A stretch of DNA of 64,000 bases, taken from NCBI RefSeq assembly GCF_004118265.1, contig NZ_SDHW01000006.1, positions 62,001 through 126,000 of the forward strand, in the 5' to 3' direction. The DNA comes from Lacibacter luteus. GTDB lineage: Bacteria; Bacteroidota; Bacteroidia; Chitinophagales; Chitinophagaceae. The notes under the pieces were generated by a model, which did no database searches, was not told the DNA's origin, and saw nothing but the letters and a program-made list of their open reading frames with translations. Positions 41,055-46,136 of this stretch are shown here, one piece after another. Position 1 is the stretch's first letter; each line of letters begins with the position of its first letter. Position numbers and translations under genes: made by a program.

Positions 41055-42143
41055 TCACGAATCAAGCACCTTCTTCTGATGGTTAATGCTTTCCATATGC
41101 ACCGCATCAAAATACTTGGTGATAAATTCTTTGCTCAAACCTTTACGTTCACCTTCTCTGTAAGCACGTTCCAGTATTTCGTTCCAGCGGTTTGTTTGCA
41201 GGATGGTGATGTTGTTATCTTTTTTGTACTGACCAATGCTTTCAGCAATTTTCATACGCTGACCAATGATCTGCATCAATTCATCATCAAGATGATTGAT
41301 CTGCTGACGCAATTTTTCCAATGCAGCATGATATTCTTCCGATGCCACATCTTCTTTACGCCAGATGATGCTGCTGATCATTTCGCCCAAACGTTCAGGA
41401 GTAACCTGCTGTTTCGCATCGCTCCATGCTTTATCGGGATCAATATGACTTTCGATCATCACACCATCAAAGTCGAGGTCAATTGCACGTTGTGCCGTTT
41501 CCTGTAAAATATCTCTGCGTCCGCAGATATGCGAAGGATCATTCACAATCAACATACCCGGGTTACGACGTTTCATTTCAATTGCCAGATGCCACATTGG
41601 TGCATTGCGGTATTCGGTATTACCATACGAAGAAAAACCACGATGGATCAAACCGATTTGTTTAATACCTGCACGAGCAACACGCTCCACTGCACCACTC
41701 CACAATTCGAGGTCGGGGTTAATGGGGTTCTTGATCAACACAGGTACATCCACACCACGTAACGCATCAGCTACTTCCTGTACACTGAAAGGGTTCACGG
41801 TTGTACGTGCACCGATCCATAATACATCCACATCAAACGTTAACGCATCTTCCACCTGCTTGGCAGTTGCTACTTCTGCTGCAGTTGGTAAACCTGTTAA
41901 CTCTTTTGCTTTTTGTAACCAGGGTAAACCTTTTGCACCAATCCCTTCGAACATACCGGGTTTGGTACGGGGTTTCCAAATACCTGCACGCAGAATATCT
42001 ACTTTTCCTGTTGCGGCTAACTGTTGCGCTGTGGCAACCAGTTGCTCTTCTGTTTCGGCGCTGCAAGGACCACTGATCACCAGCGGACGTTTATTCCACG
42101 CAGCCTGCACTTTTTCTTTCATGTTTGCTTCTAATGTTTGCAT
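41055..42143 (-). CDS. Bifunctional DAHP synthase / chorismate mutase (type II AroQ domain)
   Basis: The 362-aa protein has an N-terminal DAHP synthase of the AroA-beta/KDO8P-like type ('KRPLVISGPCSAETEEQLVA', 'GIWKPRTKPGMFEGIG', 'IGARTTVNPFSVQEVADAL', 'LIVNDPSHICGRRDILQETA'). A C-terminal AroQ chorismate mutase helical domain follows (about residues 270-360, 'LRQQINHLDDELMQIIGQRM', 'IGQYKKDNN'). It commits carbon to the shikimate route and sends chorismate to prephenate. In fused enzymes the mutase domain can pass on feedback by prephenate. It is preceded by a 231-bp repeat-rich gap in the operon. Confidence 0.95.
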   Translation of the reverse strand: MQTLEANMKEKVQAAWNKRPLVISGPCSAETEEQLVATAQQLAATGKVDILRAGIWKPRTKPGMFEGIGAKGLPWLQKAKELTGLPTAAEVATAKQVEDALTFDVDVLWIGARTTVNPFSVQEVADALRGVDVPVLIKNPINPDLELWSGAVERVARAGIKQIGLIHRGFSSYGNTEYRNAPMWHLAIEMKRRNPGMLIVNDPSHICGRRDILQETAQRAIDLDFDGVMIESHIDPDKAWSDAKQQVTPERLGEMISSIIWRKEDVASEEYHAALEKLRQQINHLDDELMQIIGQRMKIAESIGQYKKDNNITILQTNRWNEILERAYREGERKGLSKEFITKYFDAVHMESINHQKKVLDS

Positions 42144-42374: not shown

Positions 42375-42824
42375 TCATAAATCCCTCATCATCGCTTTAA
42401 ATCTTTGTTCCGTCATTTCAAACTTGATCTCTCCTTTTCCATACACACCTGTTTCAATCCATCCTTGCTTACGATAAAATGTTTCTGCTCTTGTACCCGG
42501 ACTTGTACTTAACCAAACCGTTTCATTTGTTTGTTCGAAATACCAATTCATCATCAGCTCATGCAATTGTTTGCCGATGCCTCTTGCTTCCACATCGGGG
42601 TTTACAAACAACGCCCAGATATTATGATCCACTAAATCAGCAATGGCAAAACCAACAACTGAACCACCGATCGTACACACCCATCCTTTCCCACGCTTTG
42701 TAATGTATTTTTCCACATCAGCATCGGTTACCAAAGCCGGGTTACTCAATGTGTTTTCTTTTACAGCATTGCGTACAACCTGCATTTGTTGAATATCCTG
42801 TATGGTTGCTTCACGAAAGATCAT
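42375..42824 (-). CDS. GNAT-family N-acetyltransferase in the aromatic operon
   Basis: The 149-aa protein has the GNAT fold: 'MIFREATIQDIQQMQVVRNA', 'GGSVVGFAIADLVDHNIWAL', the acetyl-CoA loop 'PDVEARGIGKQLHELMMNWY', and 'LSTSPGTRAETFYRKQGWIE'. The acceptor is unknown. Its start overlaps the tyrA stop (ATGA), so the two are translationally coupled and it is a true operon member, though no link to aromatic synthesis is known. Confidence 0.9.
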   Translation of the reverse strand: MIFREATIQDIQQMQVVRNAVKENTLSNPALVTDADVEKYITKRGKGWVCTIGGSVVGFAIADLVDHNIWALFVNPDVEARGIGKQLHELMMNWYFEQTNETVWLSTSPGTRAETFYRKQGWIETGVYGKGEIKFEMTEQRFKAMMRDL

Positions 42825-44920: not shown

Positions 44921-45745
44921 TTAAATTGTTTTTCCGTTTTTATAAACACCATATATCTTCAACTCAACTGTTGAAGGTTTAATTGCTTCAATCACTTTAT
45001 GAAACTGCTCAATGCTGTCAAACTCCATATCAGCATGAAAACTGTATTTGAAATCGGAGCCGGGAATGGGAAAGCTTTGCAGCTTGCTGAGGTTAATACC
45101 GCCATCAGCAATTTTTCCCAACACCCTTGCCAAACTTCCTTTCGAATGATCGGTCACAAAATTCACCGATGCTTTATTCGCCTGTTCAATAGAACCATTT
45201 TGTTCACGTTGCAAAATGAGGAAACGTGTATAGTTGTTCTTCATGGTTTGAATACCGGGAGCAATTACATTCAATCCATATAATTCAGCAGCGAGTTTAC
45301 TTGCAATAGCAGCAATATGTTTGCTCTTGTGCTGGTGAATATGTTTTGCACTCAACGCTGTATCTTCTGTTTCAACCAGCTTCCATTTGTATTTATCCAG
45401 AAAGTCGTAGCACTGCTGCAAAGCCATGGTATGCGAGTGCACTTCTTTAATATCTTCCAGTTTTACACCTTGGTTAACGATGAGGTTTTGCTTGATGTGC
45501 AGGTACACTTCGCCCACAATGACCAGGTTACTTTTCTGTAATAAATTGTAGTTAGGTAAGATGCTGCCGGCAATGGAATTTTCAATCGCCATCACTGCAC
45601 CATCACTTTCTTTTTTGTTAGCGCCGATCTTTACCACTTCCCTGAATGTTGCACAGGGAATTACTTCTACATCCTTTCCAAAGAATTGCCTTGCCGCTTC
45701 CTGGTGAAAACTGCCTTCGTAACCTTGTATTGTAACTTTCGCCAT
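44921..45745 (-). CDS. pheA: Prephenate dehydratase with ACT domain
   Basis: The 274-aa stand-alone enzyme converts prephenate to phenylpyruvate. The catalytic domain holds 'GYEGSFHQEAARQFFG', 'AIENSIAGSILPNYNLL', 'IAAIASKLAAELYGL' and the catalytic 'NNYTRFLIL'. A C-terminal ACT domain follows ('GSLARVLGKIADGGINLSKL'). The Phe-binding motif ESRP of the E. coli enzyme reads QSFP here. There is no fused chorismate mutase; that domain is on the DAHP synthase. It is the first enzyme gene of the operon, preceded by a leader-peptide/hairpin control region. Confidence 0.95.
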   Translation of the reverse strand: MAKVTIQGYEGSFHQEAARQFFGKDVEVIPCATFREVVKIGANKKESDGAVMAIENSIAGSILPNYNLLQKSNLVIVGEVYLHIKQNLIVNQGVKLEDIKEVHSHTMALQQCYDFLDKYKWKLVETEDTALSAKHIHQHKSKHIAAIASKLAAELYGLNVIAPGIQTMKNNYTRFLILQREQNGSIEQANKASVNFVTDHSKGSLARVLGKIADGGINLSKLQSFPIPGSDFKYSFHADMEFDSIEQFHKVIEAIKPSTVELKIYGVYKNGKTI

Positions 45746-45758
45746 AGTCTTAAATGAC

Positions 45759-45784
45759 GAATCCCGGCTTTTGAGCCGGGATTC
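45759..45784 (-). promoter_or_regulatory. Attenuator-type hairpin before pheA
   Basis: A perfect 11-bp stem (GAATCCCGGCT/AGCCGGGATTC) with a 4-nt loop ends 13 nt upstream of the pheA ATG. Its left arm contains CCCGGCT (45774-45780), which can pair instead with AGCCGGG (45832-45838) in the upstream leader-peptide codons. The tract after the stem (GTCATTTAAG) is only weakly U-rich, so it could act by blocking pheA translation rather than by termination alone. Confidence 0.75.
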
Positions 45785-45806
45785 TTTATGTTGTTTTGTT
45801 CTGTTA

Positions 45807-45896
45807 TCAGTTCTGTTTCAACAAAAGGAAGCCCGGCTTCATTCTAAAATAAAAGAAGCTAAAATAAAAGAAACCGTATGCTCTGTTTGTTGTCAT
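45807..45896 (-). CDS. Phe/Tyr-rich leader peptide of the aromatic operon
   Basis: This is a 29-codon reading frame starting at the ATG at 45896. Codons 9-17 read FFYFSFFYF, and in total it has seven Phe and three Tyr codons. It ends in TGA 61 nt before the pheA ATG. The codons right after the run (KPG) form the AGCCGGG segment able to disrupt the downstream hairpin. This is the classic layout of ribosome-mediated attenuation: stalling for lack of charged tRNA-Phe or tRNA-Tyr frees the pheA start or prevents termination. Its ATG is only 7 nt after the -7 box, so the transcript may be almost leaderless. Confidence 0.85.
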   Translation of the reverse strand: MTTNRAYGFFYFSFFYFRMKPGFLLLKQN

Positions 45897-45902
45897 GAGA
45901 GT

Positions 45903-45932
45903 CAAATGTAGACAGGGTTTTCTATAAAACAA
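45903..45932 (-). promoter_or_regulatory. Promoter of the aromatic amino acid operon
   Basis: The minus strand reads TTG (45930-45932), a 19-nt spacer, and TACATTTG (45903-45910). Both elements and the spacing fit the Bacteroidota -33/-7 consensus (TTTG, about 19-21 nt, TAnnTTTG). Confidence 0.8.
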
Positions 45933-46010: not shown

Positions 46011-46037
46011 AAAAAAGCCATTCCAGGAATGGAACGG
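46011..46037 (-). terminator. Intrinsic terminator of the small lipoprotein gene
   Basis: On the minus strand a CCATTCC/GGAATGG stem, bounded by GGCC/GGC bases, is followed by TTTTTT. It lies about 100 bp past the lipoprotein stop, upstream of the aromatic-operon promoter. Confidence 0.75.
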
Positions 46038-46136
46038 CCGTTAACGATTGCTTGCCATATGAAAGATTTATTTCGGTCTCATCACTCCCCGGCAAGCTGG
46101 GATTGTTCACTCTTCACGGTGAGCCGAAAGCTGAAA

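What the first reader, a model, noticed from the sequence alone, without database searches (positions are those of the whole stretch)
45759..45932. Phe/Tyr leader-peptide attenuator controlling the aromatic operon
In 174 bp there is a promoter match, a 29-codon frame with an FFYFSFFYF run, a perfect 11-bp hairpin before pheA, and a 7-bp alternative pairing between leader codons 20-22 and the hairpin. This is a full attenuation layout, in a phylum where few such circuits have been studied. I have no record of this one being described.
Basis: partly seen in the sequence, partly recalled or inferred. Interest (0 to 1): 0.85.

Follow-up and report, generated by a model that had tools for sequence, protein, structure and literature searches.

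The report
Phe/Tyr leader-peptide attenuator before pheA
A short gene rich in phenylalanine and tyrosine codons, followed by two RNA hairpins that cannot form together, very probably switches the aromatic amino-acid operon on when those amino acids run short; this is a textbook kind of switch, here conserved in many related bacteria and apparently read almost from the first base of the RNA.

Summary
On the minus strand, a Bacteroidota-type promoter, a 29-codon ORF with FFYFSFFYF, an 11-bp hairpin and a 7-bp alternative pairing precede pheA–aminotransferase–tyrA. All 80 loci examined (window plus 79 relatives) have a Phe/Tyr leader and a hairpin. Terminator (12 pairs) and a longer antiterminator (18 pairs, 5' strand inside the leader) show compensatory changes, several independent on a PheA tree. 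CCGGG lies in three codon phases, so RNA, not peptide, is conserved. Outside the family, 78 of 100 pheA loci carry a Phe/Tyr-rich upstream ORF (reverse-strand control 13 of 118). Most likely: ribosome-mediated transcription attenuation. Caveats: the window's U-tract is among the weakest of the 80; no expression data. Additions: the promoter box ends 4–10 nt before the leader ATG in 75 of 80 loci, so the leader mRNA is probably leaderless or nearly so, though not in most family loci with a diverged element. In two genomes without a pheA match the attenuator precedes tyrA genes and its codons shift to Tyr. A pheA 5' element is already reported in Flavobacterium: a new member of a known kind.

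The parts
45903..45932 (-). Predicted sigma-ABfr-type promoter: TTG (45932-45930), 19-nt spacer, TACATTTG -7 box (45910-45903)
   Evidence: a box at -12 to -5 (PMC9723704 passage) puts the predicted start site at 45898
45807..45896 (-). Leader peptide ORF MTTNRAYGFFYFSFFYFRMKPGFLLLKQN, 29 codons plus TGA; predicted 5'UTR about 2 nt
45846..45872 (-). Regulatory codons 9-17, FFYFSFFYF
   Evidence: Phe/Tyr run in 80 of 80 loci
45832..45838 (-). Antiterminator helix A, 5' strand AGCCGGG inside leader codons 20-22
45819..45827 (-). Antiterminator helix B, 5' strand CTTTTGTTG inside leader codons 24-26
45784..45793 (-). Antiterminator helix B, 3' strand CAACATAAAG just before the hairpin
45774..45780 (-). 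Antiterminator helix A, 3' strand CCCGGCT, which is also part of the 5' arm of the terminator
45759..45784 (-). Terminator hairpin GAATCCCGGCTCAAAAGCCGGGATTC, 11 bp, followed by a weak U-tract
44921..45745 (-). pheA, prephenate dehydratase, 274 aa
43686..44834 (-). PLP-dependent aminotransferase, second gene; a match in 80 of 80 relative loci L002-L081
42821..43675 (-). tyrA, prephenate dehydrogenase; a match in 77 of 80 relative loci within the DNA held
42375..42824 (-). GNAT-type N-acetyltransferase-like gene between tyrA and the DAHP synthase gene (matches below curated cut-offs)
41055..42143 (-). DAHP synthase fused to chorismate mutase

Best explanation
This is a ribosome-mediated transcription attenuator controlling the aromatic operon by the charging of tRNA-Phe and tRNA-Tyr. 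RNA polymerase starts about 2 nt before the leader AUG, and a ribosome loads at the RNA 5' end and follows it. When Phe and Tyr are plentiful, the ribosome runs through the Phe/Tyr codons to the stop and keeps the antiterminator's 5' strand from pairing; the CCCGGC arm then pairs with the downstream GCCGGG and transcription ends before pheA. When either amino acid is short, the ribosome stalls in codons 9-17, leaving AGCCGGG and CTTTTGTTG free to pair with CAACATAAAG...CCCGGCT; the terminator cannot form and the operon is read. Shown by sequence and comparison: leader frame, both alternative structures and their covariation, conserved promoter box, operon content. Inferred: the start site, near-leaderless loading, stalling, termination, and the Phe-or-Tyr response.
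For: 80 of 80 loci have a Phe/Tyr leader (mean 5.7 F, 3.9 Y) and a hairpin 14-43 nt after its stop. Antiterminator: 18 pairs, 89.2% of cells paired, 10 pairs with changes on both sides, 42 such cells against 12.1 in shuffles; slid controls pair at most 50.8%. Terminator: 12 pairs, 93.6% paired, 63 double-change cells against 14.5; slid controls at most 61.1%. On a PheA tree of 80 rows the minimum numbers of Watson-Crick to Watson-Crick changes at eleven chosen pairs were 5, 5, 3, 2 and 0 (antiterminator) and 10, 7, 8, 4, 2 and 2 (terminator). In L077 and L081 all three strands changed together. CCGGG is in codon phase 0 in 68, phase 2 in 5 and phase 1 in 1 of 80, absent in 6. The isolated structures have similar predicted energies, -20.9 and -21.8 kcal/mol. 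In two family genomes without a pheA match, R1 hits precede aminotransferase-tyrA (leader F2 Y5; hit E 3.1e-10) and a tyrA with no aminotransferase gene directly before it (leader F0 Y6; hit E 5.1e-4).
Against: The window's U-tract is weak: 5 T in the 9 nt after CCGGGA, the lowest class, shared by 10 of 80 loci, and it fails the scan on the minus strand. RNAalifold alone predicts only the terminator; the antiterminator is a structure I named from the alignment, which favours it over slid versions, and shuffle counts are not probabilities for related rows. Pair 70-147 is unpaired in 34 of 79 distinct rows. With a footprint of about 15 nt either side of the P site (recalled), a ribosome at the window's stop would cover helix B but not helix A. 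A protector (1:2) hairpin is not consistently supported. Of 100 pheA loci outside the family, 22 lack an ORF with 6 or more F/Y in 12 residues, including 8 of 8 in one family; 4 of 18 family pheA loci without a model hit lack one too. Of 16 tyrA regions outside the family that lie apart from a pheA match, one shows a plausible leader. No expression data.
Confidence: 0.87

Rival explanations
1. Translational attenuation: the hairpin, 13 nt before the pheA start, blocks ribosome access to pheA instead of ending transcription, and the same leader-driven antiterminator opens it.
For: In the window the hairpin ends 13 nt before the pheA ATG and the U-tract is weak. The hairpin lies within 15 nt of the script's pheA start in 36 of 80 loci (counted).
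Against: In the other 44 of 80 the script's pheA start is 20-180 nt away (in some of these an N-terminal extension puts the true start nearer), and T-rich tails follow the hairpin in most loci (6 or more T of 9 in 70 of 80).
Confidence: 0.07
2. Nascent-peptide arrest: the leader peptide itself senses free Phe or Tyr, as TnaC senses tryptophan (recalled), and the conserved RPGMLLLK-like tail is the arrest motif.
For: A PG-containing peptide tail is conserved in most family loci.
Against: The tail changes where the reading phase of CCGGG shifts (6 of 80) and in other families, and the order of F and Y is not conserved, while the pairing strands covary.
Confidence: 0.03
3. A constitutive or protein-controlled terminator; the leader frame is a by-product or a small protein gene.
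For: No functional data link translation to the switch here.
Against: Phe/Tyr richness matches the operon product in 80 of 80 loci and shifts to Tyr in two tyrA loci of genomes without a pheA match; the antiterminator strand inside the leader covaries with the hairpin; no Rfam family, riboswitch or T-box included, reaches threshold.
Confidence: 0.03

Closest known systems
Escherichia coli pheA leader (Rfam RF01859 Phe_leader; its biology recalled)
   Same: Phe-rich leader peptide, mutually exclusive terminator and antiterminator before pheA.
   Different: No significant match: 18.9 bits against a gathering score of 55. Here Phe and Tyr codons are mixed, pheA and tyrA share the operon, and the leader is predicted nearly leaderless with a Bacteroidota promoter.
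Structured 5' elements before pheA and hisG in Flavobacterium psychrophilum (PMC9723704)
   Same: Same phylum and gene; the authors see strong clues of leader-peptide attenuation before amino-acid operons and conservation in other Flavobacteriaceae (passages read).
   Different: The passages seen give no Phe/Tyr peptide, no antiterminator and no covariation (supplements not available); leaderless mRNAs are 5.5% there.
Sinorhizobium meliloti trpL attenuator (PMC7298713)
   Same: The leader RNA begins at the ATG of the leader ORF, so it may act as a leaderless mRNA (passages read).
   Different: Different phylum, Trp leader; its attenuator RNA also acts in trans.
Bacteroid-trp RNA motif RF01692 (PMC2864571)
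   Same: Cis-regulatory candidate in Bacteroidetes (table row seen).
   Different: Not matched at gathering threshold by the window or by 20 relative loci, which included the own-genome his and trp loci.
Computational surveys of amino-acid attenuators (Lopatovskaya 2010, seen only as a reference-list title; Vitreschak 2004, recalled)
   Same: Classical attenuation in many bacterial groups; I recall Bacteroidetes among them.
   Different: Texts not seen here, so overlap with this element is unknown.

Membership tests
Ribosome-mediated (leader-peptide) transcription attenuators | Short leader ORF with clustered codons for the operon's product | tested here: met
   80 of 80 loci; aromatic operon genes identified
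Ribosome-mediated (leader-peptide) transcription attenuators | Mutually exclusive terminator and antiterminator, conserved with compensatory changes | tested here: met
Ribosome-mediated (leader-peptide) transcription attenuators | Antiterminator 5' strand free when the ribosome stalls, covered when it reaches the stop | tested here: inconclusive
   Geometry fits: run at codons 9-17, strands at codons 20-26, stop at codon 30; by a recalled footprint the stopped ribosome covers helix B but not helix A
Ribosome-mediated (leader-peptide) transcription attenuators | Intrinsic terminator with a U-tract | tested here: inconclusive
   Weak in the window (5 T of 9); 70 of 80 loci have 6 or more
Ribosome-mediated (leader-peptide) transcription attenuators | Protector (1:2) hairpin in the untranslated state | tested here: inconclusive
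   Seen in many single-sequence folds, not in the consensus
Ribosome-mediated (leader-peptide) transcription attenuators | Expression responds to charging of the cognate tRNA | not testable with these tools
   Needs an experiment
Rfam RF01859 Phe_leader | Score at or above the gathering threshold | tested here: not met
   18.9 bits against 55
T-box or other known riboswitch | Match to an Rfam family at gathering threshold | tested here: not met
   No match in the window or in 20 relative loci
Leaderless mRNA | Transcription start at or within a few nt of the start codon | tested here: inconclusive
   Predicted from the -7 box 4-10 nt before the ATG in 75 of 80 loci; no start-site mapping

The most novel reading that the evidence does not exclude
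Many Chitinophagaceae control phe/tyr, his and trp operons with a shared compact design: leaderless or nearly leaderless leader peptides, loaded at the RNA 5' end, feeding a two-state switch in which a strand inside or next to the leader's last codons copies the terminator's 3' arm. The aromatic one would read two tRNAs at once (Phe or Tyr), and its codons would be retuned to Tyr when it governs tyrosine genes alone. In a phylum where only about 4-6% of mRNAs are leaderless or nearly so in the two species with data, this would make leaderless initiation a built-in part of amino-acid sensing.
Probability: 0.6. Interest if true: 0.58.

Novelty: new member of a known kind. Interest (0 to 1): 0.45.

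Why it matters
It gives a concrete, comparatively supported regulatory circuit for aromatic amino-acid synthesis in a large and little-studied group, with an RNA element that matched no family in the Rfam release searched. If the near-leaderless start is confirmed, it makes a clean test of how ribosomes load on leaderless mRNAs in bacteria that lack Shine-Dalgarno sites, because the output of the switch depends on that loading.

Tried and rejected
Rfam: no family at gathering threshold; sub-threshold matches (rnk_pseudo 27.7 bits, Phe_leader 18.9 bits and others) were judged chance. Sigma-70 promoter scan: not applicable to this phylum. A conserved protector hairpin: not supported. Codon content strictly tracking the operon's product: only partly borne out. 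Two family genomes without a pheA match (leaders F2 Y5 and F0 Y6; an entry in my notebook wrongly says Y7) and one outside the family (G256, F2 Y3) fit. Against it: of 16 tyrA regions outside the family, picked by eye as lying apart from a pheA match, only G256 shows a plausible leader, and one region was only 289 bases; 7 family tyrA regions gave none, several being cut by contig ends; in 10 of the 80 pheA leaders Tyr outnumbers Phe (counted); and the pheA leaders of family f39 keep Tyr codons although tyrA lies elsewhere in the three f39 genomes where it was detected. Literature: nine searches in the held open-access library listed no paper that I recognised as describing this element in Chitinophagaceae; most subscription papers are not in it.

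Rows dropped: L049 is cut at its contig end just before pheA and was not counted upstream (80 of 81 loci counted). G180 (partial pheA), G309 (partial match) and G217, G213, G441 (weak matches) were not fetched for the pheA upstream counts. G353 (weak tyrA) was not fetched. For trp leaders, one search was given 18 of the 24 trpE loci; the other 6 (weak or partial matches) were seen only. The box search picked the best box within 25 nt of the chosen start; L030's gap of 1 nt comes from a probably wrong upstream start.

Full report
What is there. The feature lies on the minus strand. A TTG and a TACATTTG box spaced 19 nt apart (45932-45903) precede a 29-codon ORF (45896-45807), MTTNRAYGFFYFSFFYFRMKPGFLLLKQN. 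It is followed by a perfect 11-bp hairpin (45784-45759) and, 13 nt later, by pheA. The genes downstream are pheA, a PLP aminotransferase, tyrA, a GNAT-like gene and a DAHP synthase/chorismate mutase.

Conservation in relatives. One genome-contig scan with PheA found 202 relatives and kept the best 80 loci; one (L049) has no upstream DNA, leaving 79 plus the window. All 80 have a Phe/Tyr-rich leader ORF, with 7 to 11 Phe/Tyr in 12 residues, and a best hairpin starting 14-43 nt after its stop. Mean content is 5.7 Phe and 3.9 Tyr codons per leader. A match to the aminotransferase is present in 80 of 80 relative loci, L049 included, and one to tyrA in 77 of 80 within the DNA held.

Two exclusive structures. 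Counted as a named structure of 18 pairs, 89.2% of cells pair; 10 pairs have changes on both sides; 42 cells have such changes against 12.1 in shuffles; slid versions pair at most 50.8%. The terminator (12 pairs) pairs in 93.6% of cells, with 63 double-change cells against 14.5, and at most 61.1% when slid. Shuffle counts are not probabilities for related rows, and naming the structure from the alignment favours it over slid versions. On a quick maximum-likelihood tree of the 80 PheA proteins, the minimum numbers of Watson-Crick to Watson-Crick changes at eleven chosen variable pairs were 5, 5, 3, 2 and 0 (antiterminator) and 10, 7, 8, 4, 2 and 2 (terminator), so most of the covariation is not one inherited event. 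In L077 and L081 all three strands (leader, 5' arm, 3' arm) have changed together. CCGGG lies in codon phase 0 in 68 loci, phase 2 in 5 and phase 1 in 1, and is absent in 6; the RNA, not the peptide, is what is kept there. RNAalifold on its own finds only the terminator, as expected when one strand serves two structures.

Breadth. A covariance model of A1 (R1) has one significant hit in the own genome. It hits 122 of 194 genomes of the family and 39 of 396 of the class, 10 of these in the family; PheA itself, at E 1e-20, is found in 137 of 194 and 115 of 396. I fetched the upstream regions of 18 family pheA loci without a model hit at that place and of 100 of the 104 pheA genomes outside the family. 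An ORF with at least 6 Phe/Tyr in 12 residues occurs in 14 of 18 and 78 of 100 (at least 7: 13 and 68), against 13 and 4 of 118 on the reverse strands. Exceptions cluster: 0 of 8 in family f13 and 4 of 9 in f16, where three best ORFs look like the end of an aroA gene (recalled, not searched). The leader therefore looks old in the class, while the exact RNA motif is narrower.

A near-leaderless leader. A TAnnTTTG-like box (5 or 6 of 6 matches) ends 4-10 nt before the leader ATG in 75 of 80 loci; it is perfect in 73 of 80, and perfect at that distance in 69 (counted); TTG lies 17-21 nt upstream of the box in 66 of 80. Across all ATGs of the 80 relative loci, both strands, a perfect box at that distance occurs in 104 of 14,273, a count that includes the leaders; in the window it is 3 of 2,535. 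In F. psychrophilum the box occupies -12 to -5 (PMC9723704 passage), so these leaders should start 0-6 nt before the ATG, 2 nt in the window. Leaderless mRNAs are 5.5% there, and only about 3.7% of 5'UTRs in Bacteroides thetaiotaomicron are under 10 nt (PMC7366714 passage). Against a uniform rule: of the 18 family loci without a model hit, only 3 have a perfect box within 10 nt of the chosen start. Outside the family it is rare: 6 of 100 best ORFs have a perfect box within 13 nt, three of them in the same-order family f2; otherwise perfect boxes lie mostly 15-50 nt away or were not found within 90 nt. The same design recurs at his and trp in 29 relatives searched: a box with at least 5 of 6 matches lies within 10 nt of the leader in 14 of 19 his loci and 15 of 18 trp loci in which the script found leader and hairpin (one further hisG locus gave none, 6 further trpE loci were not given, and no chance rate was computed for this looser box). 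The own genome has MISNTHTHHHHTCPNR before hisG (box 6 of 6, 4 nt) and MNKTITNTQWWWHTTLKGL before trpE (box 5 of 6, 7 nt). The start sites are inferred, not mapped.

A natural test. Two family genomes with an R1 hit have no PheA match at the threshold used. In G068 (90% complete) the leader, F2 Y5, precedes the aminotransferase and tyrA; in G062 (99% complete; weak hit, E 5.1e-4) a leader with no Phe and six Tyr codons precedes a tyrA without the aminotransferase gene before it, with a TCCCGGC hairpin retained. In the 80 pheA loci the lowest Phe count is 3, though Tyr outnumbers Phe in 10. This fits codon-specific sensing, but it is two cases: of 16 tyrA regions outside the family that lie apart from a pheA match, only one (G256, F2 Y3) has a plausible leader.

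Weak points. The window's own U-tract (GTCATTTAAG after the stem) is among the weakest: 5 T of 9, as in 10 of 80 loci. Three same-genus genomes have TTCTTCATTTT. A ribosome at the window's stop codon would, by a recalled footprint, cover helix B but not helix A. A protector hairpin is not consistently predicted. Nothing here measures expression.

Known or new. Leader-peptide attenuation is textbook. A structured 5' element before pheA, and clues of leader-peptide attenuation at amino-acid operons, are on record for F. psychrophilum (PMC9723704 passages), and an attenuator RNA beginning at its leader ATG is known in S. meliloti (PMC7298713 passages). No Rfam family matches at gathering threshold in the window or 20 relative loci. 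Nine library searches listed no account that I recognised of this element in Chitinophagaceae. I file it as a new member of a known kind; the shared near-leaderless design is the part most worth testing.

Noticed in passing
L002, L003, L004, L005, L006, L013, L021, L030, L036, L039, L051, L053 (between terminator and pheA core): 12 of 80 loci have at least four CCCC/GGGG words between the terminator and the conserved pheA core; in several of them, by eye, a GC-rich inverted-repeat pair frames a new pheA start codon and adds an N-terminal extension (e.g. SPLRGRRG). The window lacks it, and one form of the repeat occurs only twice in the own genome. It looks like a mobile repeat that inserts at gene starts.
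   Followed up: partly
L248 and L277 (own genome, contigs C26 and C11): The own genome has His- and Trp-rich leader peptides with the same two-hairpin layout and a -7-like box 4 and 7 nt before the leader ATG.
   Followed up: yes
L144 (G062) and L145 (G068): In two genomes without a pheA match, the attenuator precedes tyrA or aminotransferase-tyrA, and the leader has Y6 F0 or Y5 F2.
   Followed up: partly
L143 (G130:C75): One genome carries a second pheA copy whose upstream region has no Phe/Tyr leader, besides a copy with an R1 hit on another contig.
   Followed up: no
window 46016-46039, minus strand: A 10-bp terminator-like hairpin with a T-run lies upstream of the leader promoter and may end the preceding transcript, which would fit a separate transcription unit starting at the leader.
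   Followed up: no
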